The notes below the pieces were generated by a model, which ran no database searches, was not told the DNA's origin, and saw only the letters and a list, made by a program, of their open reading frames with translations. Positions 32,796 through 47,273 of a stretch of 64,000 nt of DNA are shown in pieces. Position 1 is the first letter of the stretch. Each line of letters begins with the position of its first letter. Source of the stretch: Agrococcus carbonis (GTDB lineage Bacteria; Actinomycetota; Actinomycetes; Actinomycetales; Microbacteriaceae); assembly GCF_900104705.1 (NCBI RefSeq), contig NZ_LT629734.1, forward strand, positions 2,294,001 to 2,358,000. The letters run 5' to 3'. The position numbers were made by a program, and so were the translations under genes.

Positions 32796-33278
32796 ATGCC
32801 TCGCATCGCCGTCGTGCCCGGTTCGTTCGACCCCGTCACCCTGGGGCACCTCGATGTCGTGGAGCGTGCCGCGAAGCTCTTCGACGAGGTGCACGTCGTC
32901 GTCACGCACAACCCCGACAAGCAGGCGTTCCTCCCGGTCGTCGAGCGCGAGCAGCTCATTGAGCGGGCGATCGAGGAGGCCCGGATCGAGGGCGAGATCC
33001 GCATCGCCAACTGGTCGATGGGCCTGCTCGTCGACTACTGCCAGCAGGTGGGCGCGCAGGTGCTCGTCAAGGGGATCCGCACGTCGACCGACCTCGCCTA
33101 CGAGACCCCGATGTCCATCGTCAACCGCAACCTCGCGGGCGTCGAGACGATCTTCATGCTGCCCAACCCCGAGAACGCGCACGTCTCGTCGAGCCTCGTG
33201 CGCCAGGTGTCCGAGCTCGGCGGCGACGTGAGCCCCTACGTGCCGCGCGCCGTCGCCACCTTCCTGCAGCAGCGATGA
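32796..33278 (+). CDS. coaD: Phosphopantetheine adenylyltransferase
   Basis: 160 aa. [14 protein letters not shown] (residues 8-21, the T/HxGH nucleotidyltransferase motif), [14 protein letters not shown] (~88), and VSSSLVR near 130. It converts 4'-phosphopantetheine to dephospho-CoA, the fourth step of CoA synthesis. The 160 bases between recG and this gene carry no other feature than the -10 box. Its stop overlaps the start of cofE (ATGA). Confidence 0.96.
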
Positions 33279-34093
33279 CCGAGCGCGAGCGCGGCGAGGC
33301 GGAGCGCGGTCCCGACCTCGAGCTCCGCGCGGTGCGCGGGATGGGCGAGATCCGGCCGGGCGACGACCTGCCTGCGCTCATCGGCGATGCGCTCGCCCCG
33401 CTCGGGCCCGCCGAGGGCGACATCGTGGTCGTGACGAGCAAGATCATCTCGAAGGCCGAGGGCCGCATCCGCCCCGCAGCCGAGCGCGAGCAGGCGATCG
33501 ACGACGAATCGGTGCGCCTCGTCGCGAGCCGCGAGCACCCGGGCGGCGTCACGCGCATCGTCGAGCACCGCACCGGGCTCGTGCTCGCCGCGGCCGGCGT
33601 CGACGCGTCGAACACCGACGAGGGCACGATCCTGCTGCTGCCCGAGGACTCGGATGCGTCGGCTCGCGCGATCGCCGCCGCGCTGCGGTCGCGCTTCGGG
33701 GTCGCCGTCGGCGTGGTCGTGAGCGACACCCTCGGGCGCGCGTGGCGGGTCGGGCAGACGGATGCGGCGATCGGCGCAGCGGGCGTGCGCGTGCTCGAGC
33801 CGCTCGCGGGCCAGGTCGACGCGAGCGGGCGGCCGCTCACGGTGACGGCGCCGGCGATCGCCGACGAGATCGCCGCGGCCGCCGACCTCGTCGCGGGCAA
33901 GGCCACCGGCGTGCCGGTCGTGCTCGTGCGCGGACTCGCGCGGCACGTGACGGGGCTCGACGAGCCCGGGGCGCGGCGGCTCGTGCGCCCCGCCGCCGAC
34001 GACATGTTCCGGCAGGGCGCCGACGAGGCATACCGCGCAGGGCTCGAGGCCGGCCGCCGCGAGGCGATGGCGACGACGGGGAGCGGCACGTGA
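33275..34093 (+). CDS. cofE: Coenzyme F420-0:L-glutamate ligase
   Basis: 272 aa. Adds glutamate to F420-0 with GTP. Motifs: [14 protein letters not shown] (residues ~50-63), [15 protein letters not shown] (~110) and [21 protein letters not shown] (~150), all family-defining. It has only the ligase domain; the C-terminal FMN nitroreductase-like domain of mycobacterial FbiB, which reduces dehydro-F420-0, is absent. Coupled to coaD and to the MoxR gene by 4-nt overlaps, and separated by about 5 kb from cofC and cofD. Confidence 0.93.
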
Positions 34094-35115
34094 GCGACGA
34101 CGCAGGACGCCCGGCGGCGAGGTCGGGCGAGGGGCGGGCAGCCGTCGCGGGCCCGCAGCCGATGCTCGACCTCGCGCCGGAGCTCCCGGCGACGGCGGGC
34201 GAGCGGATCGAGCGTGCGGTCGCGAGCGTCATCGCCGGCAAGCGCGAGGAGATCCGCACGGTGCTCACGGTGCTGCTCGCCGAGGGGCACGTGCTGCTCG
34301 AGGATGTGCCGGGCGTCGGCAAGACGCAGCTCGCCCGCGCCTTCGCCGCGGCCGTCGGCGGCACCGTGCGCCGCATCCAGTGCACCCCCGACCTGCTGCC
34401 GAGCGACATCACCGGCATGTCGATGCTCGACCAGCGCTCGGGCGAGCTGCGCTTCCAGCCGGGCCCGGTGTTCGCCAACATCGTCATCGCCGACGAGATC
34501 AACCGCGCGAGCCCCAAGACGCAGGCGGCGCTGCTCGAGTGCATGGCCGAGGGGCAGGTGACCGTCGACGGCGTCACGCACGTGCTGCCGAAGCCGTTCC
34601 TCGTCGTCGCGACGCAGAACCCCATCGACATGGAGGGCACCTACGCGCTGCCCGAGGCGCAGCGCGACCGCTTCATGGCTCGGCTCGAGCTCGGCTACCC
34701 CGACGAGGACGCCGAGCACGCGATGGTGTCGGCGCGCGAGACGGCACAGCCGCTCGACTCGGTGACCGCGGTGACGACGCAGGAGCAGTTCCAGGCCGAG
34801 ATCGACGCCGCGCACGCGGTGCGCGCGCACGAGCTCGTCGAGCGCTACGCCGTGCGGCTCGCCCGCGCGACCCGCGCCCACCCCGACGTGCGGCTCGGCG
34901 CGAGCCCGCGCGCGACGCTGCAGCTCGTGCGCGCGGCGAAGGCGCACGCGCACCTGAGCGGCCGCGACTGGCTCTCGCCCGACGACGTGCGCGCGCTCGC
35001 CGTGCACGTGCTGCCGCACCACCTCGTGATGCACGACCCGCACGCGCGCTACCAGGACGCGCGCGACGTGGTCTCTCAGGCGCTCGCCCAGACGGTCGCC
35101 CCCGTCATGCGCTGA
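34090..35115 (+). CDS. MoxR-family AAA+ ATPase
   Basis: 341 aa, GTG start overlapping the cofE stop. Walker [13 protein letters not shown] (residues ~72-83), Walker [28 protein letters not shown], sensor 1 [20 protein letters not shown], Arg finger DRF, and the C-terminal lid [19 protein letters not shown]. MoxR ATPases act as chaperones for partner proteins, commonly a DUF58 and a transglutaminase protein encoded alongside, exactly as in this operon. Confidence 0.92.
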
Positions 35116-36323
35116 TGGCCGGCGATCGCGGGCGCGCGCGGCGCAGGGGCGCCGCGGGAGCCCCGCGCGGCGCCGGCGCTCGCGAGCGCCTGCGGGTGCG
35201 GCCGACCGCGCGCGGTGTCGCCCTCGTGCTCGTCGGCGCGGCGCTCGCGGTGGGCGCCTACTGGGAGCGGCAGATCGTGCTGCTCGTGCCCGCGGCGCTG
35301 TGCCTCGCGGTGGTCGTGCTGGGCGTGTGGTGGGCCGCCGGCGCCGTCGGCCAGGTGCGGCTGCGGGTGCCGGGCGTCATCGCCGAGGGCGAGGATGCGT
35401 GGCTCAGCATCGCGAGCGAGCGCCCGCAGGCGGGCGCTCGGTGGGAGACGTGGGGGCCGGGGCCCGAGCGCTACCTGCTGCTCGAGGGCGAGCTCGACGA
35501 CGAGGGCCGCGCGGAGCTGCCGCTCGGCGACCATCCGCGGGGGCGGTGGCGGCTCGCGCCGGTCGCGATCACGGCGTTCGACCCCTTCCGGGTGGCGCGC
35601 AGCGCCCGCACGATCGACCCGGGCGCGAGCCTCGTCGTGGGGCCCGAGATCGTGACGATCCCGCCGACGGCGCTGCGCTCCGACCGCGAGCAGGGGCGCG
35701 TCGCGCAGTCGCGCACCGCCGACGACGTCGACGCGATGGTGCGCGAGTGGCGGCACGGCGACCCGCAGCGGCGCGTGCACTGGCGCCAGACCGCCAAGCG
35801 CGGCTACCTCATGGTGCGGCAGGAGGCGAACCCTGCGAGCGATGACGACATCGTCGTGGTCGACACGGCCGGCGCCGCCGACCTCGACCGCGACGCACAC
35901 GACCGCCTCGCGCGAGCCGCGTGCTCGATCGTGCGCGCACTCGCCGGCGGGGACCGGCGCGTCGTCGTGCGCGAGACCGGCGAGCCGTCGATCGCCGCCG
36001 CCGACTGGCGCGACCGGGCGGCGGCGCTCGCGGCCTTCGCGTCGATGGAGGCGGTGGCGCCGGTGGAGGAGGGTGAGGGCACCCGCGAGCCCGGCGATGA
36101 GCACAGGTCGCGGGAGAGGTCGGAAAGGACCTCTCCTCTCAACGCCACCGCGCACGTCGTCGCGCTCGAGGAGGCCGCACCCGAGACCTGGCGCCTCGCG
36201 CCCGGCTCCACCCTGTGGCTCGTGGCGCGTGCCGACGCGCCGCCGCGCAGCAGCGCATCCGCCTCGCGCGTGCGCGTCCAGCGCTGGATCGACCACCGCG
36301 GTCCCGTGCGGGAGCTCGTGTGA
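35115..36323 (+). CDS. DUF58 membrane-anchored protein
   Basis: 402 aa. An Arg-rich N-terminus, two membrane spans (ALVLVGAALAVGAYW; IVLLVPAALCLAVVVLGVWW, residues ~38-80) and a cytoplasmic part with the DUF58 motif REWRHGDPQRRVHWRQTAKRG near residue 215, followed by a vWA-like region starting IVVVDTAG. A charged insertion (~residues 317-345) is poorly conserved. It is the usual partner of MoxR. Overlaps the MoxR gene by one base (TGATG) and the next gene by 4. Confidence 0.88.
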   Translation: MAGDRGRARRRGAAGAPRGAGARERLRVRPTARGVALVLVGAALAVGAYWERQIVLLVPAALCLAVVVLGVWWAAGAVGQVRLRVPGVIAEGEDAWLSIASERPQAGARWETWGPGPERYLLLEGELDDEGRAELPLGDHPRGRWRLAPVAITAFDPFRVARSARTIDPGASLVVGPEIVTIPPTALRSDREQGRVAQSRTADDVDAMVREWRHGDPQRRVHWRQTAKRGYLMVRQEANPASDDDIVVVDTAGAADLDRDAHDRLARAACSIVRALAGGDRRVVVRETGEPSIAAADWRDRAAALAAFASMEAVAPVEEGEGTREPGDEHRSRERSERTSPLNATAHVVALEEAAPETWRLAPGSTLWLVARADAPPRSSASASRVRVQRWIDHRGPVRELV

Positions 36324-38584
36324 GCGGCGTGACGGAGCAGCGGCGCTCGACCGGTCCGGCGCCCGCGGCCCCCGCATCCGACCCTGCGCCCCGGCGGGAG
36401 CCTCGCCTCCGCGCGCGCGGCGCGGGCGTGGTCGAGACGCTCGCGCTCGCGGCGCTGCCGGTCGCGTGGCTGTGGTCGGCGATCACGGTGCTCGGCGAGG
36501 CGTGGCTGTGGCCGGTGGCCGGCGCCGTCGGCTCGATGGCGGTCGCGGCGGCGCTCGTGCGGCAGGCGGGCGCGCCGGTGTTCGGCTCCGCAGCGGCGGC
36601 GATCGTGGGGTTCGGATGGGTGACCGCGCTCACGGCTCCCGAGGAGGCGCTGCTCGGCGTCGTGCCGACGCCGGAGTCGTTCCCGGTGTCGATGCAGGTG
36701 CTGAGCGACGGGGTGCTCGCGATCGCGTGGGCGCCGTCGACGCCGATCGACGCGCGCGGCGCGGTGCTCGCGGCCGTCGTGGCCGCAGCCGTCATGATCG
36801 CGGCGATCGTCGACCTCATGGCGCACGCGCTGCGGCTGCCGGCCGTCGCGGTGGCGTTCGCGGCCGTGCCGCTGCTGCTGCCGATCGCCTTCCGCATCGA
36901 CGTGCCGTGGTGGCACGCGCTGCCCGGCGTCGTCGCCACGGCGTGCGTGCTCGCGGCGCCCGCGCTCGATGAGCGGCTGCTCGCGCGCCGCGGGTGGCTC
37001 GCGCCCATCGCGCTCGTCGGCGCCGCCGCGGTGCTCGCGGCCGCGGTGCCGCTCATCGCCCCGGCGCCCCGCGACGTCGACTGGGACCTGCCGACGCTCG
37101 ACGAGGTCTTCACCCCCGCGACGCCCGTCCTCAGCACCGAGATCGACCTGGGCGACGAGCTGCGCCGGCCCGCCGACCGGCCGGTGTTCACCTACTCGAC
37201 CGCCGACGGGCAGCCGATGCCGACGCGCCTCATGACGCTGCCGCAGGCGGGGGAGTCGGGCTTCGAGGCCGTGACGCCGCAAGCCGGCAGCCCCGGGGCG
37301 CTCGTCGAGGGGGCGGCGAGCGTCGAGGCGACGCAGATGACGGTGCGGATGGGCGCCGTGCAGGCCGAGAGCCTGCCGATGCCCGAGCGCGCGCTCGGTG
37401 CGCGCGTGCCCGAGGGATCGAGCTGGGACGACGCGAACGACGCGCTGCGGCTGAGCGCCGACATCGACACGCAGGGCCTCGAGTACACCGCCTCGGGGAC
37501 CCGGTCGCCGCCGCTCGTGGCGCTGCCGGCCGCGGGCGCCTCGAGCGGCCACGATGCCGAGCGCGCGCTGCCCGAGGCCGCGGCCGCGATCGCGGCGCGG
37601 GGCGCGGCGCTCGTCGACGACGGCATGAGCGCCACCCAGCGCGTGCTCGCCGTGCACGGGGCGATGACGAGCGGCCTCTGGAACTACTCCGAGGAGCTCG
37701 ACCTGCCCGGCTTCGGCGGCTCGGGCGGCGGCGACGGCTGGGCGGCGCTCGAGGGCTTCCTCGAGACGCGCAGCGGCTACTGCGTGCACTACGCGAGCGC
37801 GACCGCCGCGCTGCTGCGCGGCGCGGGCGTGCCCTCGCGCGTCGTCGTCGGCTTCCTGCCCGGCTCCGAGATCTCGGGCGGCTGGGCGGTCTCGACCAAC
37901 GAGATGCACGCGTGGGCCGAGGCCTGGCTCGACGACTTCGGATGGGTGCGCGTCGAGACGACGCCCGGCGCCGGCACGGGCGCCGCGAGCCCGACGGGCG
38001 ATGTGCCGACCCGCAGCCCCGAGCCGCAGCCGACCGAGACCGAGGAGCCCGTCGAGAGCGAGGAGCCGAGCCCGTCGCCGACACCCTCGGCCACGGCGAC
38101 CGCTCCGGCGCCCACCGCGTCAGCGACGCCCGCGCCCCAGGTGGAGCGCGGGCCGGCGATCGACCCGGCGCTCGTGCGCGGGATCCTCCTCGCGCTCGGC
38201 ATCGCCCTGCTGCTCGCGCTGCCCGCGCTCGTGCGGCTCGCGCAGCGCCGGCTGCGCCTGCGCCGCGGTGCGCCGGGCGGCTGGCACGAGCTGCGCGCGA
38301 CGCTCGCCGACCTCGGTACCAGGCTGCCCGCATCCGCGACGCCGGGCGCACTGCAGGCGGCGATCGCGGCGCGTGCGCCGGATGCGGCTGCCGCGGCCGA
38401 CCGGGTGCGGCTCGCCGCGGAGCGCGCGGTGTTCGACGCGGGTCCGCGCGAGCCCGGCGTCGTCGACGACGACGTGCGGTCGGTGCGGCGGTCGCTCGCC
38501 GCGGCGTCGCCGCCGTGGCGACGCGCGATCGCGGTCATCCTGCCGCCGAGCCTGCTGGGCGTGGTGCGCCGGAGCGAGGATTGA
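36320..38584 (+). CDS. Transglutaminase-like membrane protein
   Basis: 754 aa. About seven N-terminal spans (residues 35-245), an outside domain with the transglutaminase core: Cys in RSGYCVHYASATAALLRGAG (~residue 488), His in NEMHAWAEAWLDDFGW (~528), and VRVETTPG where Asp is commonly replaced. A Pro/Thr/Glu-rich linker (~560-610) leads to a last span (ILLALGIALLLALPALV) and a C-terminal DUF4129-like cytoplasmic tail. Third member of the MoxR-DUF58-transglutaminase set, thought to act on the cell envelope. GTG start at 36320 overlaps the DUF58 stop. Confidence 0.87.
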   Translation: MSGVTEQRRSTGPAPAAPASDPAPRREPRLRARGAGVVETLALAALPVAWLWSAITVLGEAWLWPVAGAVGSMAVAAALVRQAGAPVFGSAAAAIVGFGWVTALTAPEEALLGVVPTPESFPVSMQVLSDGVLAIAWAPSTPIDARGAVLAAVVAAAVMIAAIVDLMAHALRLPAVAVAFAAVPLLLPIAFRIDVPWWHALPGVVATACVLAAPALDERLLARRGWLAPIALVGAAAVLAAAVPLIAPAPRDVDWDLPTLDEVFTPATPVLSTEIDLGDELRRPADRPVFTYSTADGQPMPTRLMTLPQAGESGFEAVTPQAGSPGALVEGAASVEATQMTVRMGAVQAESLPMPERALGARVPEGSSWDDANDALRLSADIDTQGLEYTASGTRSPPLVALPAAGASSGHDAERALPEAAAAIAARGAALVDDGMSATQRVLAVHGAMTSGLWNYSEELDLPGFGGSGGGDGWAALEGFLETRSGYCVHYASATAALLRGAGVPSRVVVGFLPGSEISGGWAVSTNEMHAWAEAWLDDFGWVRVETTPGAGTGAASPTGDVPTRSPEPQPTETEEPVESEEPSPSPTPSATATAPAPTASATPAPQVERGPAIDPALVRGILLALGIALLLALPALVRLAQRRLRLRRGAPGGWHELRATLADLGTRLPASATPGALQAAIAARAPDAAAAADRVRLAAERAVFDAGPREPGVVDDDVRSVRRSLAAASPPWRRAIAVILPPSLLGVVRRSED

Positions 38585-38629
38585 GTGGTTCCTGAGCCGC
38601 GGCGGCCGATCGCGGCATCCGCGGGCGCT

Positions 38630-38635
38630 TAGGCT
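38630..38635 (+). promoter_or_regulatory. -10 box TAGGCT of cofC, leaderless arrangement
   Basis: TAGGCT ends 7 nt before ATG 38643, with no ribosome site other than weak GGGCGG. Confidence 0.5.
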
Positions 38636-38642
38636 GGGCGGC

Positions 38643-39248
38643 ATGCTGTGGTCGGTCGTGATCCCCGTGAAGGGCTCGATCGGCAAGTCGCGCCTTCGCG
38701 CGGGCGACGCCCGGGCCGCGCTCGCGGTCGCGTTCGCGCGCGACACGATCGCTGCGGCCCGAGCCGCCGCGTGCGTCGACCGCGTCGTCGTCGTCACCGC
38801 CGACCGCGACGTCGTGCGCGGGATCGCCGGCGTCGACCTCGTTCCGGACCCCGAGGCCGGCCTGCGCGGCGCGATCGCCGCCGGCACCGATGCGCTCGCG
38901 CCCGACGCCCCGGCCGCGGTCATGCTCGGCGACCTCCCCGCGCTGACGCCGGAGGCGCTCGAGGGCGCGCTGGCGCTCGCAGAGCAGCATCCGCGCTCGT
39001 ACGTCGCCGACGCGCTCGCGACCGGCACGACCCTCCTCGCCGCGAGGCGAGCGGATGCGCTGCGACCGCACTTCGGCCCCGGCTCCGCCGAGCTGCACCA
39101 GCAGGCGGGGCACGTCGAGCTGCCCGTCGCGCCCGACTCGGGGCTGCGCGTCGACGTCGACGAGCTCGCCGACCTGCACCTCGCGATCGACCTCGGCGTC
39201 GGCCCGCACACGCAGGCGGTGCTGCGCGAGGCGTCCGCCGCCGCCTGA
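38643..39248 (+). CDS. cofC: 2-phospho-L-lactate/phosphoenolpyruvate guanylyltransferase
   Basis: 201 aa. Motifs: SVVIPVKGSIGKSRL (residues 4-18, nucleotide binding), VMLGDLPALTPEAL (~98) and FGPGSAELHQQAG (~142), which match CofC/FbiD. It activates phosphoenolpyruvate (actinobacteria) or 2-phospholactate with GTP for transfer to Fo by CofD. Own leaderless promoter. It faces cofD across a 389-bp repeat-filled gap, so the two converge. Confidence 0.93.
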   Translation: MLWSVVIPVKGSIGKSRLRAGDARAALAVAFARDTIAAARAAACVDRVVVVTADRDVVRGIAGVDLVPDPEAGLRGAIAAGTDALAPDAPAAVMLGDLPALTPEALEGALALAEQHPRSYVADALATGTTLLAARRADALRPHFGPGSAELHQQAGHVELPVAPDSGLRVDVDELADLHLAIDLGVGPHTQAVLREASAAA

Positions 39249-39637
39249 GGGCCCCGGGTCAAAGGGGGTCCCCTCCGCCCGCGGGGTTCGCCCACGCTCG
39301 CTGATCGAGTAGGGCCGCAGGAGCCGGCCGTCGTAGGTCGAGGAGCGCGCGCCGCAGGCGCACGCGTCACGAGACCGCCCGCGGGGTTCGCCCACGCTCG
39401 CTGATCGAGTAGGGCCGTAGGCCCGTATCGAGATCCCGGGTGTGTCGTCTCGATACGCCCTGCGGGCTACTCGACGACCGAGGGGAGTCCCCTCGCTGAT
39501 CGAGTAGAGCCGCAGGAGGCCGCCGTAGGTCGACGAGCGCGCGCCGCAGGCGCACGCGTCACGAGACCGGAGGCAGCGGATAGCCGGCCCTGCGGCCTCG
39601 TGACGGCAGCGACGCTGCGCGTCGCGGACTCCTCGAC
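39249..39637. repeat. Cluster of REP-like palindromes between cofC and cofD
   Basis: No gene in 389 nt. Seven elements in both orientations: GATCGAGTAG type at 39303, GGTCGAGGAG...CGTCACGAGACC at 39336-39376, GATCGAGTAG...GTATCGAGATC at 39403-39435, an inverted copy 39447-39475, GATCGAGTAG at 39499, GGTCGACGAG...CGTCACGAGACC at 39528-39568, and an inverted copy 39596-39638 that touches the cofD stop codon. The 27-nt lead GCGGGGTTCGCCCACGCTCG is duplicated (39281 and 39381). It probably also ends both transcripts. Confidence 0.8.
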
Positions 39638-40594
39638 CTACGGGCGCGCTGCGGCCGCGAGCGCGAGCGCCTCGCGCGCGACCTGCGCCGCCGGCCCGCC
39701 CGGCGTCAGCAGCAGCGGGCGCGCCTCCGCCGGCATGCCGAGCGCGCGGATCGCCTCGAGCGATCCCGCGTCCTCCTCGGCGACGAGCCAGCCGTCGAGC
39801 AGCCCGCCCGCCGACCGCGCGCCGTAGTGCGCGGCGACCGCAGCCGCATCCGGCTCGACCCCGATCACCTCGAGGCACGTGACGGCCATGCCGCGCACGA
39901 CCCGACCGCCGATGATGGGGGAGACCCCGACGACGGGTGCCGCCGCCGTCTCGAGCGCGTCCCGCACGCCCGGGATGCCCACGATCGTTCCGATCGAGAC
40001 GACCGGGTTCGACGGTGCGACGAGCACGACGTCGGCGTGGGCGATCGCCGCGTGCGCCGCGTCCGAGATGCGGGCGCGCTCGGCACCGTGCTGCACGAAC
40101 CGGTGCGCGGGCGCCGTCGCGCGCGTGCGCACCCACCACTCCTCGAAGTGCAGGATGCCTTCGTCGGTCACGACGTGCGTCGGCACCTCGTCGTCGGTGA
40201 CGGGCAGCAGCGTGACGCCGAGCGGCCAGCGCGCCGCGAGCCGCGCCGTCGCCTCGGTGAGCGTCGCCCCGTCGCGCAGCAGCGCCGTGCGCGCGAGGTG
40301 GGTGCCGAGGTCGAGGTCGCCGAGCGTGAACCACGGCCAGCCGACCCCGTAGGCGGCGAGCTCGCCCGCCACCCGCTCGCTCTCGCCCGCGCGGCCCCAG
40401 CCCCGCTCGGTGTCGCCGACGCCCGCGAGCGCGTACATGAGCGAGTCGAGATCGGGGCACACCTTCACGCCCGCGAGCCACATGTCGTCGCCGACGTTCG
40501 CGACCACGGTGATGTGCGCGTCGGGTGCGGCCTCCCGCAGCCCGAGCGCGAAGCGCGCCCCGCCGACGCCGCCGGCGAGCACGGTGATCCTCAT
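39638..40594 (-). CDS. cofD: 2-phospho-L-lactate transferase (Fo to F420-0/dehydro-F420-0)
   Basis: 318 aa. CofD/FbiA motifs: LAGGVGGARFALGL (residues 5-18), VANVGDDMWLAGVKVCPDLDSLMYALAG (~38-65) and APSNPVVSIGTIVGIPGVRDAL (~205-226). It joins the activated three-carbon acid made by CofC to the deazaflavin Fo. ATG 40594 has GAGGAGGG 6 nt upstream; the longer frame is not supported. It follows the ABC cassette on the same strand with a 25-nt gap and is probably part of that transcript. Confidence 0.94.
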   Translation of the reverse strand: MRITVLAGGVGGARFALGLREAAPDAHITVVANVGDDMWLAGVKVCPDLDSLMYALAGVGDTERGWGRAGESERVAGELAAYGVGWPWFTLGDLDLGTHLARTALLRDGATLTEATARLAARWPLGVTLLPVTDDEVPTHVVTDEGILHFEEWWVRTRATAPAHRFVQHGAERARISDAAHAAIAHADVVLVAPSNPVVSIGTIVGIPGVRDALETAAAPVVGVSPIIGGRVVRGMAVTCLEVIGVEPDAAAVAAHYGARSAGGLLDGWLVAEEDAGSLEAIRALGMPAEARPLLLTPGGPAAQVAREALALAAAARP

Positions 40595-40619
40595 GCGCCG
40601 TCCCTCCTCGCGCGCGCCC

Positions 40620-41479
<860 letters not shown>

Positions 41480-41483
<4 letters not shown>

Positions 41484-42601
41484 GTGCGCACCCGCCCGGT
41501 CAGCATGAGCGCCGCGAAGAGGGGCGCGCCGATGAGCGCCGTCACGATGCCCACCGGCAGCTCGCGCGGGTCGAACGCCGAGCGCGCCACGGTGTCGGCG
41601 AGCAGCAGCACGACGCCGCCCGCGAGCCCCGACGCCGGCAGCAGCAGCGCGTGCGACGCGCCCACGACGAGCCGCACCGCGTGCGGCACGACGAGCCCCA
41701 CGAACCCGATCGCCCCCGACACCGACACGAGCACGCCCGTCACGAGCGCGCACGCGACGAGCAGCGCCCAGCGGGTGCGGCGCGCGTCGATGCCGAGCGC
41801 GCCCGCCGCGTCGTCGCCGAGCGCGAGCGCGTCGAGCATGCGGCCGCTCAGCAGCAGCGGCACGGTGAGCGCGGCGCCGACGAGGGCGATCGCCGCGCTC
41901 GGCCACGTGATCGCGGCGAGCGAGCCGAGCAGCCACGCGAGGATCTGCCGGAACGCGTCGCCCGACGCGCTCCAGAAGATGACGAGCGAGACGACGGCGG
42001 TGGCGGCGGATGCGACGACGACGCCCGCGAGCACGGTGCGGGTGGGCGTCGCCCCGCCCGCCGCGGCCGCGAGCCCGAGCGTCGCGAGCAGCGCGAGCAG
42101 CGCACCGGCGAAGGCCGCGACCGGCAGGAGCACCCCGAGCCCCGCGATGAGCACGAGCACGGCGCCGACCGACGCGCCCGAGGAGACGCCGAGTAGGTAG
42201 GGGTCGGCGAGCGGGTTGCGCACGAGCGCCTGCATGACGGCGCCGGCGATCGCGAGCCCCGCGCCCACCGCGACCGCGGCGAGCACGCGCGGCAGGCGCA
42301 GGTCGGCGACGATCGCGTCGTCGATGCGCCCGAGCGGCGTCTCGCCGATGCCGAGCCGGGCCGCGAGCGCGGCGAGCGCATCGCCGGGCGCGATGCCCGC
42401 GGCGCCGAAGCACACCGCGGCGAGCACGAGCGCGACGAGCAGCGCGCCGAGCGCCGGCAGCGCCCAGCGCCGCCGTCCGCGGCCGCGGCTCGGCACGCCG
42501 CGGGCAGACCCGTCGCTGACCACCGGACCCACGGCGGACGTCCCGGCGACCGGCGGCGCCGCCGCCGGGGCCTCATGCCCCGCAGAGCCCAGCGTGGTCA
42601 C
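41480..42601 (-). CDS. FecCD-family ABC permease, proposed F420-0 importer
   Basis: 373 aa with about ten spans. Family motifs: RLPRVLAAVAVGAGLAIAGAVMQ (residues ~85-107), NPLADPYLLGVSSGAS, the coupling region GIDARRTRW and GAIGFVGLVVPH. The start is uncertain: GTG 42601 has GAGGGG about 9 nt upstream, but GTG 42523 and GTG 42634 are possible. The DNA for the extra N-terminus lies in the triple GTGGTCACGACACGCCG repeat, so part of the 5' region may be untranslated leader. Confidence 0.82.
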
Positions 42602-42678
42602 GACACGCCGCCCCTCGTCGGCTGGGGTGGTCACGACACGCCGTCCGTGCGACGCGGGCGCGGCGTGTCCTGACCACC
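42594..42678 (-). repeat. Triple GTGGTCACGACACGCCG module in the permease leader
   Basis: Plus-strand copies GTGGTCACGACACGCCG at 42594-42610 and 42627-42643, and an inverted copy CGGCGTGTCCTGACCAC from 42661. The second and third form an 18-bp stem with one mismatch and a 17-nt loop. It lies between the binding-protein gene (stop at 42729) and the permease, so it may attenuate transcription or be a mobile repeat. Confidence 0.6.
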
Positions 42679-42728
42679 CAACCGGCCGTCGGTTCGATCC
42701 GCGAGCTGCCGCCCTGTGGTGCCGCGCG

Positions 42729-43727
42729 TCACCCCAGCCCCATCTCCCGCGCGCCGTCGGCGACGAGCCGCGCGGCCGCGACCGACCCGACGCCCGCCTC
42801 GGCCATCGGGAACGGCACGACGACGAAGCGCTCCTCGCGCACGGCGGCGAGCTCCGCCGTCGCCGGGTTCGCCCGCAGCCGCTCGATCTTCGACTCGGCC
42901 GTGTGCCAAGGCGCGTCGACGAGCACGATGAGGTCGGGATCGCTCGCCGCGACCGCCTCCCACGACAGCGTCGTCCAGGTCTCGTCGACGCCCGCGGCGA
43001 CGTTCGTGAGCCCGGCGGTCTCGAGCACGAGCTGCGGGGCGCCCGAGCCCGCGCCGACGTAGGGCGCGTCCTCGCCCGACGAGTACCAGAGGGCGGATGC
43101 GTCGGAGGCGACGGGCTCGATCGTCGCGAGATCCTGGCGCTGCTCCGCCGCGAGCGCGGCGCCCGCCTCCGGCACGCCGAGCGCCGACGCGGCGGCCCCG
43201 AACTCGTCGAGCAGCGCCTCCCACGTGAGCGGCGCGACGTCGGTCGACCAGCACGCGGCGGGCGAGACCCACGTCGTGATCCCGAGCGCCTCGAGCTGCG
43301 CGCGGTCGCCGACCGCCTCGGGGGCGAAGGCCGACTCCCACCCCGCCACCACGGCATCCGGCTCGAGCTCGAGCACCGATTCGCGCGAGGGCATGCCCTC
43401 GATCGCCGCGGCGTCGCTCGGCACGCCCGCCGGCGCGGGGCCGTCGAGGAACGCGGTCGCGACGAGCGCGTCGCCCAGGCCGAGCGCGACGACGAGCTCG
43501 GCGGCGGTCGACTTGATCGCGACGATGCGCTCTGCGGGCGCGGCCCTCGGCGTCACCGCGACGCCGCAGTCCTCGATCGTCGCGGCGGTCGGCGTCGCTC
43601 CGGGGTCGACGGGACCGGCGGCCGGTGCCGAGCAGCCGGCGAGGGCGACGGCGAGGCCGAGGGCGAGTGCGCTGGCGGCGAGGGAGGAGGCGCGGCGCGA
43701 CGGGCGCGGGCGGCGGGGTGCGGGCAT
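42729..43727 (-). CDS. Substrate-binding lipoprotein, FecB/BtuF type, proposed F420-0 importer
   Basis: 332 aa. Twin-Arg-like basic start and lipobox: PSRRASSLAASALALGLAVALAGC, Cys near 33. The mature part has the type III binding-protein layout: IVAIKSTAAELVVALGLGDALVA, ESVLELEPDAVVAGWES, and SWEAVAASDPDLIVLVDAPWHT. AGGAG precedes ATG 43727. First gene of the minus-strand run that leads through permease and ATPase to cofD. A type like this was proposed to bind F420-0 in actinobacteria. Confidence 0.83.
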   Translation of the reverse strand: MPAPRRPRPSRRASSLAASALALGLAVALAGCSAPAAGPVDPGATPTAATIEDCGVAVTPRAAPAERIVAIKSTAAELVVALGLGDALVATAFLDGPAPAGVPSDAAAIEGMPSRESVLELEPDAVVAGWESAFAPEAVGDRAQLEALGITTWVSPAACWSTDVAPLTWEALLDEFGAAASALGVPEAGAALAAEQRQDLATIEPVASDASALWYSSGEDAPYVGAGSGAPQLVLETAGLTNVAAGVDETWTTLSWEAVAASDPDLIVLVDAPWHTAESKIERLRANPATAELAAVREERFVVVPFPMAEAGVGSVAAARLVADGAREMGLG

Positions 43728-43921: not shown

Positions 43922-44770
43922 ATGACGACAGTGCGCGCAGCCATCTCCCAGACCACCTGGACGGGCGACAAGGCATCGATGCTCGACCGCCACGAGGCGT
44001 TCCAACGGGAGGCGGCCGCGCAGGGCGCGCAGGTCATCTGCTTCCAGGAGCTCTTCTACGGCCCCTACTTCGGCATCACGCAGGATCAGAAGTACTACCG
44101 CTACGCCGAGCCCGCCGACGGTCCGATCGTGCAGCGCTTCGCGGCGCTCGCGAAGGAGCTCGGCATGGTGACGATCCTCCCGATCTACGAGGAGGAGCAG
44201 ACGGGCGTGTACTACAACTCGGCCGTCGTCGTCGACGCGGACGGGTCGATCCTCGGCACCTACCGCAAGCACCACCTGCCGCACCTCGACCGGTTCTGGG
44301 AGAAGTTCTACTTCCGCCCGGGCAACCTCGGCTACCCGGTCTTCGACACCGCCGTCGGCAAGGTCGGCGTCTACATCTGCTACGACCGGCACTTCCCCGA
44401 GGGGTGGCGCGAGCTCGGCCTCGGCGGCGCCCACATGGTCTTCAACCCCAACGCCACGAAGCCCGGGCTGTCGAACCGGCTGTGGGAGATCGAGGGCCCG
44501 GCCGCGGCCGTCGCGAACGGCTACTTCGTGCTGCAGCCCAACCGCGTCGGCCGCGAGGACAACGAGTACGGCGAGCTCGCCGTCGACTTCTACGGCACGA
44601 GCCAGGTGATCGACCCGCGCGGCAACTTCGTGGGGGAGAAGGGCTCGAGCGAGCACGAGGAGCTGCTCGTGCGCGATCTCGACCTCGACCTCGTGCAGCA
44701 GATGCGCGACGACTGGCAGTTCTACCGGGATCGCCGCCCCGACTCGTACACCCGGATCGCGAAGCCGTAG
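43922..44770 (+). CDS. Nitrilase-superfamily amidohydrolase, beta-ureidopropionase type
   Basis: 282 aa. Catalytic Glu in CFQELFYGPYFG (residue ~43), Lys in TYRKHHLPH (~117) and Cys in GVYICYDRHFPEGWR (~156) form the Glu-Lys-Cys triad. FYGPYFG and the HLPHLDRFWEKFYF segment match N-carbamoyl-beta-alanine or N-carbamoyl-amino-acid amidohydrolases. It would release ammonia and CO2 from N-carbamoyl-beta-alanine, the product of the enzyme encoded next. GAGGA stands close before ATG 43922. Confidence 0.85.
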   Translation: MTTVRAAISQTTWTGDKASMLDRHEAFQREAAAQGAQVICFQELFYGPYFGITQDQKYYRYAEPADGPIVQRFAALAKELGMVTILPIYEEEQTGVYYNSAVVVDADGSILGTYRKHHLPHLDRFWEKFYFRPGNLGYPVFDTAVGKVGVYICYDRHFPEGWRELGLGGAHMVFNPNATKPGLSNRLWEIEGPAAAVANGYFVLQPNRVGREDNEYGELAVDFYGTSQVIDPRGNFVGEKGSSEHEELLVRDLDLDLVQQMRDDWQFYRDRRPDSYTRIAKP

Positions 44771-44779
44771 GAGGCGACC

Positions 44780-46216
44780 ATGGCGACCACACTCATCTCC
44801 GGCGGCACCGTCGTGAGCGCCACCGGCGCATCCGCCGCCGACGTGCTCATCGACGGCGAGACCATCCGCGCCGTGCTGCAGCCGGGCAGCGAGCTGCTCG
44901 GGGTCGACCTCGCGCGCTCGGTCGACCGGGTCGTGGACGCGACGGGCAAGTACGTGATCCCCGGCGGCATCGATGCCCACACGCACATGCAGATGCCCTT
45001 CGGCGGCACGGAGGCGAGCGACACGTTCGAGACCGGGACCCGGGCCGCGGCGTGGGGCGGCACGACGACGATCGTCGACTTCGTGGTGCAGACCGTCGGG
45101 CAGCGGGTCGAGGACACGCTCGCGGCGTGGCACGAGAAGGCGGCCGGCAACTGCGCGATCGACTACGGCTTCCACCAGATCATCGGCGAGGTGAACGACG
45201 CGTCGCTGACGGCCCTGCGGGGGCTCGAGGCGGAGGGCGTCACGAGCTACAAGCTCTTCATGGCCTACCCGGGCGTCTTCTACTCCGACGACGCGCAGAT
45301 CCTGCGCGCCATGCAGGTCGGGGCCGAGACGGGCCTCATGACGATGATGCACGCCGAGAACGGGCCGGCGATCGACGTGCTCGTGCAGCAGCTCGTGGCC
45401 GAGGGCAAGACCGATCCGTACTTCCACGGCATCGCCCGCGCGTGGCAGATGGAGGAGGAGGCGACGCACCGCGCGATCATGCTCGCGCACCTCACGGGCG
45501 CGCCGCTCTACGTCGTGCACGTGAGCGCGAAGCAGGCGGTCGCGCAGCTCGCCGCCGCGCGCGACAAGGGCCAGAACGTCTTCGGCGAGACGTGCCCGCA
45601 GTACCTCTACCTCTCGCTCGAGGATCAGCTGGGCGCCTCGAGCGACGAGTGGGGCGCCTTCGAGGGCGCGAAGTACGTGTGCTCGACGCCGCTGCGCTCG
45701 AAGCACGAGCACCACCAGGACGAGCTGTGGACGGCGCTGGGCACCAACGACCTGCAGATGGTCTCGACCGATCACTGCCCCTTCTGCATGAAGGACCAGA
45801 AGGAGCTCGGCCGCGGCGACTTCTCCAAGATCCCCAACGGCATCGGCGGCGTCGAGCACCGCATGAACCTGCTCTACCAGGGGGTCGTCGACGGGCACCT
45901 GACGCTCGAGCGCTGGGTCGAGATCACCGCCACGACGCCCGCCCGCATGTTCGGCATGTACGGCAAGAAGGGCGTCATCCAGCCCGGCGCCGACGCCGAC
46001 ATCGTCGTCTACGACCCCGCCGGCCGCACGAAGCTCGGCATCGACGAGACGCACCACATGAACATGGACTACTCGGCGTGGGAGGGCTTCGAGATCGCCG
46101 GGCACGTCGACACGGTGCTGAGCCGCGGCCGCGTGATCGTCGATGCGGATGCGTACCTGGGCCGGGCCGGCGACGGCGCGTACGTGCGCCGCGGGCTCAG
46201 CCAGTACCTGCGGTGA
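44780..46216 (+). CDS. Dihydropyrimidinase/D-hydantoinase
   Basis: 478 aa. Binuclear zinc site: DAHTHMQMP (residues ~64-72), carboxylated Lys in SYKLFMAYPG (~157), His in MMHAENG (~190) and VVHVSAKQA (~247), Asp in VSTDHCPF (~330). These are the full set of the hydantoinase/dihydropyrimidinase family, and CPFCMKDQKE is typical for dihydropyrimidinases. It opens dihydrouracil or hydantoin rings to carbamoyl acids. TAGGAGG begins at the stop codon of the preceding gene and serves ATG 44780. Confidence 0.92.
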   Translation: MATTLISGGTVVSATGASAADVLIDGETIRAVLQPGSELLGVDLARSVDRVVDATGKYVIPGGIDAHTHMQMPFGGTEASDTFETGTRAAAWGGTTTIVDFVVQTVGQRVEDTLAAWHEKAAGNCAIDYGFHQIIGEVNDASLTALRGLEAEGVTSYKLFMAYPGVFYSDDAQILRAMQVGAETGLMTMMHAENGPAIDVLVQQLVAEGKTDPYFHGIARAWQMEEEATHRAIMLAHLTGAPLYVVHVSAKQAVAQLAAARDKGQNVFGETCPQYLYLSLEDQLGASSDEWGAFEGAKYVCSTPLRSKHEHHQDELWTALGTNDLQMVSTDHCPFCMKDQKELGRGDFSKIPNGIGGVEHRMNLLYQGVVDGHLTLERWVEITATTPARMFGMYGKKGVIQPGADADIVVYDPAGRTKLGIDETHHMNMDYSAWEGFEIAGHVDTVLSRGRVIVDADAYLGRAGDGAYVRRGLSQYLR

Positions 46217-46220
46217 CCCG

Positions 46221-47273
46221 ATGGACTTCGGCGCCGTCTTCCAGACCAACCCGCCCGCGAGCCGCGTGGTGCAGCTCGCGCAGCTCGCGGAGGTGCACGG
46301 CTTCAGCCACGTGTGGACGTTCGACTCGCACATCCTCTGGCAGGAGCCGTACGTCATCCTGTCGCAGGTGCTCGCCGCGACGCGGCGCGTGCACGTCGGC
46401 CCGTTCGTCACGAACCCTGCCACGCGCGACTGGGCGGTCACCGCATCCGCCTTCGCGACCCTCAACGACATGTTCGGCAACCGCACGATCTGCGGCATCG
46501 GCCGCGGCGACTCGGCCGTGCGGGTCGGCGGCGGCGAGCCGACGACGCTCGCGACGCTGCGCGAGGCGGTGCACGTCATCCGCGAGCTCGGCTCGTCGCG
46601 GGCGGTCGAGGTGGGCACCGCGGGAGGCGAGCCCGTCACGCTGCGGCTGCCGTGGTCGAACGGCTCCGAGCTGCCGGTGTGGATCGCCGCGTACGGGCCG
46701 CGCGCCCTGCAGCTCGCGGGCGAGGTGGGCGACGGCTTCATCCTGCAGCTCGCCGACGTCGACATCACCAAGTGGATGATCGACCACGTGCGCAGCGCCG
46801 CGAGCGACGCGGGCAGAGACCCGGACGCGGTGAAGATCTGCGTCGCCGCCCCCGCCTACGTCGGCGACGACCTCGCGCACCAGCGCGAGCAGTCCCGCTG
46901 GTTCGGCGGCATGGTCGGCAACCACGTCGCCGACATCGTCGCCCGCTACGGGAAGGCTGCGGGCACCGACGGCACGGCGGGCGCGATCCCCACCGACCTC
47001 GCCGACTACATCGCGAAGCGCGAGGGCTACGACTACAACACCCACGGCAAGGCCGAGAACGACCACGTCGACTTCGTGCCGGATGCGATCGTCGACCGGT
47101 TCTGCGTGCTCGGCACCGCCGACGACCACATCGAGAAGCTCACGCGGCTGCGCGAGCTCGGCGTCGACCAGTTCGCCGCCTACGTCATGCACGACGACAA
47201 GGAGGAGACGCTGCGCCAGTACGGCGAGCGCATCATCCCTGCGCTGCGAGAGCACGCGCGCGCCCGCAGCTGA
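46221..47273 (+). CDS. Luciferase-like (LLM) flavin/F420-dependent oxidoreductase
   Basis: 350 aa. The LLM TIM barrel is recognised by MDFGAVFQTNPPASRVVQLA, GFSHVWTFDSHI, VGPFVTNPATRDW, ICGIGRGDSAVRVGG and VWIAAYGPRALQLAGEVGDGFILQ. The overall type resembles Mer-like F420 enzymes seen with dihydropyrimidinase genes. It lies 4 nt after the dihydropyrimidinase, in the operon position where a dihydropyrimidine dehydrogenase might be expected. F420 use fits the cof genes nearby but FMN is possible. Substrate unknown. Confidence 0.82.
   Translation: MDFGAVFQTNPPASRVVQLAQLAEVHGFSHVWTFDSHILWQEPYVILSQVLAATRRVHVGPFVTNPATRDWAVTASAFATLNDMFGNRTICGIGRGDSAVRVGGGEPTTLATLREAVHVIRELGSSRAVEVGTAGGEPVTLRLPWSNGSELPVWIAAYGPRALQLAGEVGDGFILQLADVDITKWMIDHVRSAASDAGRDPDAVKICVAAPAYVGDDLAHQREQSRWFGGMVGNHVADIVARYGKAAGTDGTAGAIPTDLADYIAKREGYDYNTHGKAENDHVDFVPDAIVDRFCVLGTADDHIEKLTRLRELGVDQFAAYVMHDDKEETLRQYGERIIPALREHARARS

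What the first reader, a model, noticed from the sequence alone, without database searches (positions are those of the whole stretch)
33275..43727. F420-0-type ABC importer beside cofC, cofD and cofE: possible Fo salvage
Seen: a FecB/FecCD/FecE-like cassette (40620-43727) runs into cofD with a 25-nt gap, with cofC next to it and cofE about 5 kb away. Known: such actinobacterial cassettes were proposed as F420-0 importers because they occur in genomes that keep cofE but lack the earlier steps. Inference: here CofC and CofD are present, so importing finished F420-0 would be partly redundant; a more economical cargo is the deazaflavin Fo, which CofC/D/E would turn into F420. That would make this an Fo-scavenging route if the genome has no Fo synthase.
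Basis: partly seen in the sequence, partly recalled or inferred. Interest (0 to 1): 0.75.

Follow-up and report, generated by a model that had tools for sequence, protein, structure and literature searches.

The report
Deazaflavin (Fo) importer replacing Fo synthase
This actinobacterium uses the rare redox cofactor F420 but lacks the enzyme that builds its core ring (Fo), and it most likely imports Fo made by other microbes through a dedicated transporter and finishes the cofactor itself, a vitamin-like dependence that seems to recur in many related bacteria.

Summary
In detail: a lipoprotein/permease/ATPase cassette (40620-43727) ends 25 nt before cofD, beside cofC and 4.5 kb from cofE. The genome (Agrococcus, one contig, 99.97% complete) has no cofG/cofH match; its three radical-SAM proteins are MiaB, HemW and Rv2578c-type. 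It still encodes F420-dependent enzymes, so Fo must come from outside.

In 179 family genomes, 36 carry transporter+CofC/D/E without FbiC, 16 transporter+CofE only, 40 FbiC; none carries the strong transporter and FbiC together. In the order, 4 of 93 do. But 5 family and 21-38 order genomes keep CofD with neither.

Binding-protein residues split the two transporter states: K/R80, S241 and K248 mark genomes without CofD, fitting anionic F420-0. A rule fixed on 51 proteins flags, among 84 unseen ones, 34 of 40 without CofD and 3 of 44 with it; a phylogeny-aware test on 69 gives p 5e-5. The window protein is of the CofD-keeping type (G80, A241, S248).

Best reading: an Fo importer in an Fo auxotroph, a cargo variant of the family annotated "putative F420-0 ABC transporter". 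Binding is untested; Fo may also diffuse.

The parts
33275..34093 (+). cofE, F420-0:L-glutamate ligase (single domain, 272 aa)
   Evidence: TIGR01916 218.9 bits, cut-off 180.65; PF01996
38643..39248 (+). cofC (fbiD-like) guanylyltransferase
   Evidence: TIGR03552 118.8 bits, cut-off 105; start codon candidate
39638..40594 (-). cofD (fbiA-like), transfers the phospho-lactyl/enolpyruvyl group to Fo
   Evidence: TIGR01819 325.5 bits, cut-off 257.45; start; CofD mostly conserved between species of transporter genomes
40620..41483 (-). ABC importer ATPase (start inferred)
   Evidence: best NCBIfam hit TIGR03873 254.8 bits, below cut-off 372.4; start
41480..42634 (-). ABC importer permease (FecCD type); start uncertain, GTG codons from 42634 to 42496 possible
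   Evidence: PF01032; best NCBIfam hit TIGR03869 399.1 bits, below cut-off 437.35; starts listed
42729..43727 (-). substrate-binding lipoprotein; proposed Fo type (G80, A241, S248 in mature numbering, lipidated Cys = 1)
   Evidence: best NCBIfam hit TIGR03868 325.6 bits, below cut-off 392.4; lipobox; residues; AlphaFold model mean pLDDT 91.4
46221..47273 (+). F420-dependent LLM oxidoreductase TIGR03842, a likely local user of F420, after an amidase-like and a dihydropyrimidinase gene
   Evidence: TIGR03842 562.5 bits, cut-off 295.45; start read from the frame

Best explanation
The organism (an Agrococcus) is an Fo auxotroph. The lipoprotein captures the neutral deazaflavin Fo released by other microbes, the permease/ATPase pair imports it, CofC/CofD add the phospho-lactyl (or enolpyruvyl) group to give F420-0, and CofE adds glutamates to give F420 for its F420-dependent enzymes. 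The cassette functionally replaces Fo synthase (FbiC). In relatives that also lack CofC and CofD, the same transporter family has repeatedly the residues K/R80, S241 and often K248, which fits a shift to the anionic F420-0. Shown: gene content, adjacency, exclusion with FbiC (complete in the family sample, partial in the order), residue correlation. Inferred: the cargo, the direction of the shifts, and that these residues touch the ligand.
For: No cofH or cofG match in a closed genome; the three radical-SAM matches are MiaB, HemW and Rv2578c-type. F420 demand: two F420-G6P dehydrogenases and further F420-LLM enzymes over curated cut-offs. Family: strong transporter and FbiC never together in 179 genomes; among 97 CofE genomes 52 have the transporter, 40 FbiC, 5 neither (Fisher p 4e-22, not corrected for kinship). 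36 of the 52 keep CofC and CofD, 30 of the 36 with CofD within 6 kb. CofD is conserved in transporter genomes: the 4 of 14 pairs for which YN00 ran give dN/dS about 0.04-0.05. FbiC, where within 8 kb of cofD, lies on cofD's strand (14 of 14), as the transporter does here. Residue rule: training 0 of 36 with CofD, 12 of 15 without; hold-out 3 of 44 and 34 of 40; Pagel-type test on 69 hold-out tips p 4.6e-5.
Against: No ligand has been measured. Fo is stated to diffuse through membranes (PMC8498797), so an importer may not be needed: 5 of 179 family genomes and 21 of 337 order genomes, or 38 if short CofH matches are not taken as FbiC, have CofD with neither transporter nor FbiC. Four of 93 order transporter genomes have FbiC. 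Weaker members of the same model (below 294 bits) do coexist with FbiC: 5 of 26 in the family, 8 of 19 in the order. Binding proteins of the two states interleave on the tree. NG86 dN/dS of CofD is somewhat higher in transporter genomes (0.11-0.36 in 12 pairs, 0.68-0.72 in two distant pairs) than in FbiC genomes (0.08-0.24 in 8 pairs). The window's clade sits on a long branch (0.98) with G at position 80 rather than the usual F/Q. Treekit's pair tests had only 4-5 starred pairs and did not reach 0.05.
Confidence: 0.7

Rival explanations
1. The cassette imports F420-0 in all genomes, as NCBIfam's name says; CofC/CofD serve Fo that enters by diffusion. The cell salvages two precursors by two routes.
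For: The family is named for F420-0. Fo is said to cross membranes unaided. Genomes with CofD but no transporter and no FbiC exist. Binding proteins of both states interleave.
Against: The residue rule separates CofD-keeping from CofD-lacking genomes on unseen data and after correction for kinship; one constant cargo does not predict that.
Confidence: 0.16
2. The importer is broad: it takes any deazaflavin head group (Fo and F420-0), and the residues only tune preference. (This overlaps with the best explanation as far as Fo import goes.)
For: CofD status changes at least 15 times on the tree of 120 proteins; a broad ancestor would make such losses easy. Four CofD genomes of the training set have K80.
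Against: S241 is nearly absent in CofD genomes (1 of 65), which suggests more than mild tuning.
Confidence: 0.25
3. An ordinary cobalamin, heme or siderophore importer that happens to lie beside cofD.
For: General FecB/FecCD/FecE homology; EitA, BtuF, heme and other models score below cut-off; heme and siderophore binders are structural neighbours.
Against: All three subunits match the F420-0 models best, the closest structure by far is 4mlz (40% identity), and presence tracks FbiC absence in the family.
Confidence: 0.03
4. The genome makes Fo by an unrelated, unknown route and the transporter has nothing to do with it.
For: Only homology searches were done.
Against: Known Fo synthesis uses two radical-SAM domains (PMC8498797, passage), and the genome's three radical-SAM matches are assigned elsewhere.
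Confidence: 0.04

Closest known systems
NCBIfam TIGR03868/TIGR03869/TIGR03873, putative F420-0 ABC transporter
   Same: Same three-gene architecture and best-hit families for all three subunits; lipoprotein model close to 4mlz of Jonesia denitrificans (Foldseek TM 0.86-0.88, 40% identity).
   Different: All three subunits fall below the curated cut-offs. CofC and CofD are present. Residues are G80/A241/S248, whereas 4mlz reads R80/S241/K248 in the HMMER alignment.
FbiC / CofG-CofH Fo synthase route to F420
   Same: Both would feed Fo to CofD; in the 14 of 39 FbiC genomes with cofH within 8 kb of cofD it lies on cofD's strand.
   Different: Here no Fo synthase is found in the genome.
BtuCD-F vitamin B12 importer
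   Same: Works like it: a lipoprotein captures a scarce cofactor precursor, a FecCD-type permease and an ATPase import it.
   Different: The BtuF model reaches 32.3 bits against a cut-off of 234.

Membership tests
TIGR03868-type F420-0 importer (as curated) | binding protein, permease and ATPase over curated cut-offs | tested here: not met
   325.6<392.4, 399.1<437.35, 254.8<372.4, though best hits
TIGR03868-type F420-0 importer (as curated) | genome keeps cofE but lacks the earlier F420 steps (recalled from the family's description, from no call) | tested here: not met
   CofC and CofD present, only Fo synthase not found
TIGR03868-type F420-0 importer (as curated) | binds F420-0 | not testable with these tools
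   no biochemical data; residue state is that of CofD-keeping genomes
Class III (FecB/BtuF) substrate-binding lipoprotein | PF01497 domain, lipobox, fold | tested here: met
   PF01497 66.2 bits, cut-off 27.5, LAGC lipobox, model pLDDT 91.4, 4mlz TM 0.86-0.88
Fo importer (proposed here) | no Fo synthase in the genome, CofC+CofD+CofE present over cut-off | tested here: met
Fo importer (proposed here) | binding protein without the anion-type residues (fewer than 2 of K/R80, S241, K248) | tested here: met
   window: G80, A241, S248, score 0; note that the window protein was part of the training set
Fo importer (proposed here) | binds and transports Fo | not testable with these tools
   needs purified protein and an uptake assay
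Cobalamin importer BtuCDF | BtuF/BtuC/BtuD models over cut-off | tested here: not met
   BtuF 32.3<234, BtuC 232.5<334, BtuD 129<281

The most novel reading that the evidence does not exclude
One ABC importer family in actinobacteria holds two cargo types, neutral Fo and anionic F420-0, and has switched between them many times in step with loss of CofC/CofD. A small residue code of the binding protein (80 and 241, with 248, perhaps 224 and 252) tells from sequence which deazaflavin a bacterium scavenges. F420 would then be a traded vitamin in these communities, at two different hand-over points, and the NCBIfam name F420-0 would be wrong for about half of the strong members (36 of 52 in the family sample and 52 of 93 in the order sample have CofD).
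Probability: 0.55. Interest if true: 0.85.

Novelty: new variant of a known kind. Interest (0 to 1): 0.74.

Why it matters
F420 is usually treated as a cofactor that cells make for themselves. Here a set of actinobacterial genomes seems to have outsourced either the Fo ring or the finished F420-0. In the library searched, six phrases naming an F420, F420-0, Fo or deazaflavin transporter or F420 uptake gave 0 papers; in the listings (26 and 52 showed 20 of 41 and 20 of 241) I saw no title or abstract start describing such an importer. A sequence code for the cargo makes the question directly testable with two or three purified proteins, since Fo and F420-0 are fluorescent (recalled), and it would correct the reading of genomes taken for F420 producers because they carry cofCDE.

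Tried and rejected
Rejected: a cobalamin or siderophore importer by chance (family models, structure, exclusion with FbiC). Rejected: a missed Fo synthase; CofH, CofG and the radical-SAM family were searched in a closed genome. Rejected, with less certainty: CofD as a decaying relic in transporter genomes. YN00 ran for 4 of 14 same-genus transporter pairs (0.04-0.05) and 2 of 8 FbiC pairs (0.05, 0.09); NG86 gives 0.11-0.36 for 12 transporter pairs, 0.68 and 0.72 for the two pairs at 58% identity, and 0.08-0.24 for 8 FbiC pairs. Seven of 55 CofD sequences were dropped there because my start motif missed them (G129, G032, G009, G053, G006, G089, G152). Considered: a clean split of binding-protein clades by state; it is not there, the CofE-only state is scattered (7 changes, 4 forced by starred branches, bootstrap 5-8). 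Led nowhere: treekit's independent-pair test (too few starred pairs); position 188, good in training (0.93) but 0.71 on hold-out; position 248, which is in the rule but not among the 15 best hold-out columns: K248 is in 13 of 38 CofD-lacking hold-out genomes, H is common there, and the K-or-H reading was made after seeing the hold-out.

Counting rules. Strong transporter: in the family at least 325 bits, plus G049 (one open frame, two model pieces) and G022 (cut by contig ends), 52 of 78 matches; in the order at least 294 bits plus G049, 93 of 112. The weaker matches were left out; 5 of 26 (family) and 8 of 19 (order) of their genomes have a CofH match. FbiC in the family is any CofH match at E<=1e-10: 40, of which 10 pass the curated cut-off and 37 pass it or have an open frame of 700 aa or more; the other three are G155, G099 and G177. 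In the order 58 at E<=1e-40, of which 30 pass the cut-off and 41 pass it or have a long frame; the 17 others may be other radical-SAM enzymes (the control genomes ring in species not known to me for F420). With the 41, transporter and FbiC still meet in 4 (11.3 expected, Fisher p 0.005) and CofD without either rises from 21 to 38. CofD in the order counts the 125 of 136 matches over cut-off. In one search my motif filter missed three hold-out rows; they were added. The class called D-adj/near also holds G472, G500 and G271, whose CofD is far off or on another contig. Not tested: CofE and CofC in the order sample; whether a separate dehydro-F420-0 reductase exists (CofE here is a single domain).
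Full report
Observation. CofE (33275-34093 +), CofC (about 38643-39248 +) and CofD (39638-40594 -) pass their curated NCBIfam cut-offs. The ATPase, permease and lipoprotein (40620-43727, -) have TIGR03873, TIGR03869 and TIGR03868, the putative F420-0 transporter models, as best hits, but all three score below the cut-offs. The ATPase ends at 40620 and CofD starts at 40594, a gap of 25 nt.

Is Fo made here? The genome is one contig of 2,773,210 bases, 99.97% complete. The CofH and CofG models find nothing at E<=0.001. Three radical-SAM matches exist, and they are MiaB, HemW and an Rv2578c-family protein. Yet F420 is used: 18 luciferase-like matches, of which two pass the F420-dependent glucose-6-phosphate dehydrogenase model, and others pass TIGR03559, TIGR03560 (two), TIGR03557 (L224) and TIGR03856; TIGR03842 lies in the window. 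A further TIGR03557 pass (L229) fits an FMN-type model better, and several of the 18 are FMN-type. That these enzymes use F420 is by family name, not by test. The cell thus appears to need F420, to be able to run Fo to F420, and to be unable to make Fo by the known route.

Distribution. Five models were run over the same 179 genomes of the family (tally). With the binding protein counted at about the window's own strength or better (52 of 78 matches), the classes are: transporter+CofC+CofD+CofE without FbiC 36; transporter+CofE alone 16; FbiC+CofC+CofD+CofE 39, plus one genome with a CofH fragment, CofC and CofE; CofC+CofD+CofE with neither 5; none of these genes 82. Strong transporter and FbiC never meet. 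Only 10 of the 40 CofH matches pass the curated cut-off, but 37 pass it or lie in frames of 700 aa or more, as a two-domain FbiC does. Weaker members of the transporter model do meet FbiC in 5 of 26 genomes. All four genomes sampled from the window's genus are of the first class. In the order (337 genomes) 93 have the strong transporter and 58 a CofH match; they meet in 4, where chance would give 16. 48 of the 93 have CofD without FbiC, 4 have both, 41 have neither. 21 have CofD with neither CofH match nor transporter. If only CofH matches over cut-off or in long frames count (41), the overlap is still 4 (11.3 expected) and the 21 become 38. The p-values of these tables are not corrected for kinship.

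Neighbourhood. In 30 of 36 first-class family genomes CofD lies within 6 kb of the binding protein; by the map it is beside the ATPase, as in the window, in 20 and on the binding-protein side in 10. Of 80 named loci (80 of 477 relatives were returned) 53 show CofD and 56 CofE inside the fetched stretch, some of which are short: Agrococcus, Cellulomonas, Cryobacterium, Agromyces, Arthrobacter, Naasia and others. In 14 of 39 FbiC genomes cofH lies within 8 kb of cofD, always on the same strand, so transporter and FbiC can hold similar places. CofD is conserved between species of transporter genomes: YN00 dN/dS is 0.04-0.05 in the 4 of 14 pairs where it ran; NG86 gives 0.11-0.36 in 12 pairs (0.68-0.72 in two distant ones), somewhat above the 0.08-0.24 of 8 FbiC pairs.

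A residue code for the cargo. A tree of 51 family binding proteins does not split by state: CofE-only genomes are scattered. Comparing columns showed positions (mature numbering of the window protein, lipidated Cys = 1) that do split: K/R at 80 in 13 of 15 CofE-only and 4 of 36 CofD genomes, S at 241 in 11 of 15 and 0 of 36, K at 248 in 11 of 15 and 1 of 36; two or more of the three in 12 of 15 and 0 of 36. Before fetching more I wrote the rule down (note) and applied it to all 84 other strong-transporter genomes of the order sample, 78 of them from other families. Without CofD, 34 of 40 fit the anion type; with CofD at any distance, 3 of 44 (Fisher p 6e-14). Position 241 ranked first and 80 second of 301 columns on the hold-out; 248 was not among the best 15. 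On a tree of all 135 with these columns masked, a Pagel-type test on 69 hold-out tips gives p 4.9e-5 for S241, 4.6e-5 for the rule and 0.013 for K/R80; on 120 tips 1e-9, 2e-10 and 4e-8. The 15 genomes left out of that test have a CofD that is remote or odd. The test assumes the tree, many of whose forks are weak, and treekit's stricter pair test had only 5 usable pairs (about 4.4 the same way, none or almost none the other way, median p 0.125).

Meaning. F420-0 carries a phosphodiester and a carboxylate; Fo carries neither (established chemistry, recalled). Positive or polar groups where CofC/CofD are gone, and their absence where CofD is kept, is what one expects if the first group imports F420-0 and the second Fo. 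The positions lie in loops or at ends of strands or helices of the modelled fold (80 between strand 76-78 and helix 84-89, 241 at the end of strand 235-241, 248 in helix 246-255), near invariant residues such as P82, W99-S101, S185-G187 and W243. The Jonesia denitrificans protein 4mlz is the nearest solved structure and reads R80, S241, K248 in the HMMER alignment, the anion type. That Jonesia lacks CofC/CofD is recalled from the family description, not tested. The window protein has G80, A241, S248: the CofD-keeping type, though G at 80 is unusual and its clade sits on a long branch.

Literature. Passages of a 2021 review (PMC8498797) say that Fo readily diffuses across lipid membranes; [quoted passage not shown] Passages of PMC11104420 say that Fo is present in the supernatant of Mycetohabitans and restores host sporulation when added. 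Passages of PMC3012119 and PMC5408115 held nothing on uptake. So free Fo exists to be taken up, and diffusion is a rival route. Six transporter or uptake phrases found 0 papers; other searches listed none that I recognised as describing an importer (listings only, two of them capped at 20 rows).

Verdict. I file the cassette as a cargo variant of the TIGR03868-type importer, not as an F420-0 importer, because two defining features of the latter were tested and not met. Cargo binding remains to be measured.

Noticed in passing
window 34090-38590: Between cofE and cofC lie a MoxR-like ATPase frame, a DUF58-like protein and a transglutaminase-like frame (named from reading the frames; only DUF58 was scored, 21.5 bits, below its cut-off of 23.4). 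A cofE-cofC distance of about 5 kb is also seen in other Agrococcus loci.
   Followed up: no
window 43922-47273: A carbamoylputrescine-amidase-like protein (below cut-off), a dihydropyrimidinase (over cut-off) and the F420-dependent TIGR03842 enzyme form a run beside the importer; an enzyme 64-90% identical to the last lies near the importer in many relatives, also in CofE-only genomes.
   Followed up: partly
G016, G027, G053, G153, G163 (L110-L114) and 21-38 order genomes: CofC/D/E (family) or CofD (order) without FbiC and without this transporter: another Fo source, diffusion or an unknown carrier.
   Followed up: no
G370, G453, G471, G499: Genomes with both FbiC and the strong transporter; their binding proteins are not of the anion type, which would fit recapture of leaked Fo.
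   Followed up: partly
G191, G238, G362, G455, G186, G204, G220, G248, G359 and others: A CofD far from the transporter, with intermediate binding-protein residues (E/Q80, S188, A/S241), possibly a separate CofD subfamily.
   Followed up: no
e.g. G175, G120, G050, G109, e.g. G234, G164: A more distant binding-protein group at about 190-233 bits to TIGR03868 that, unlike the strong group, coexists with a CofH match in several genomes; cargo unknown.
   Followed up: partly
window 32796-33278: coaD (pantetheine-phosphate adenylyltransferase) overlaps the start of cofE by 4 nt.
   Followed up: no
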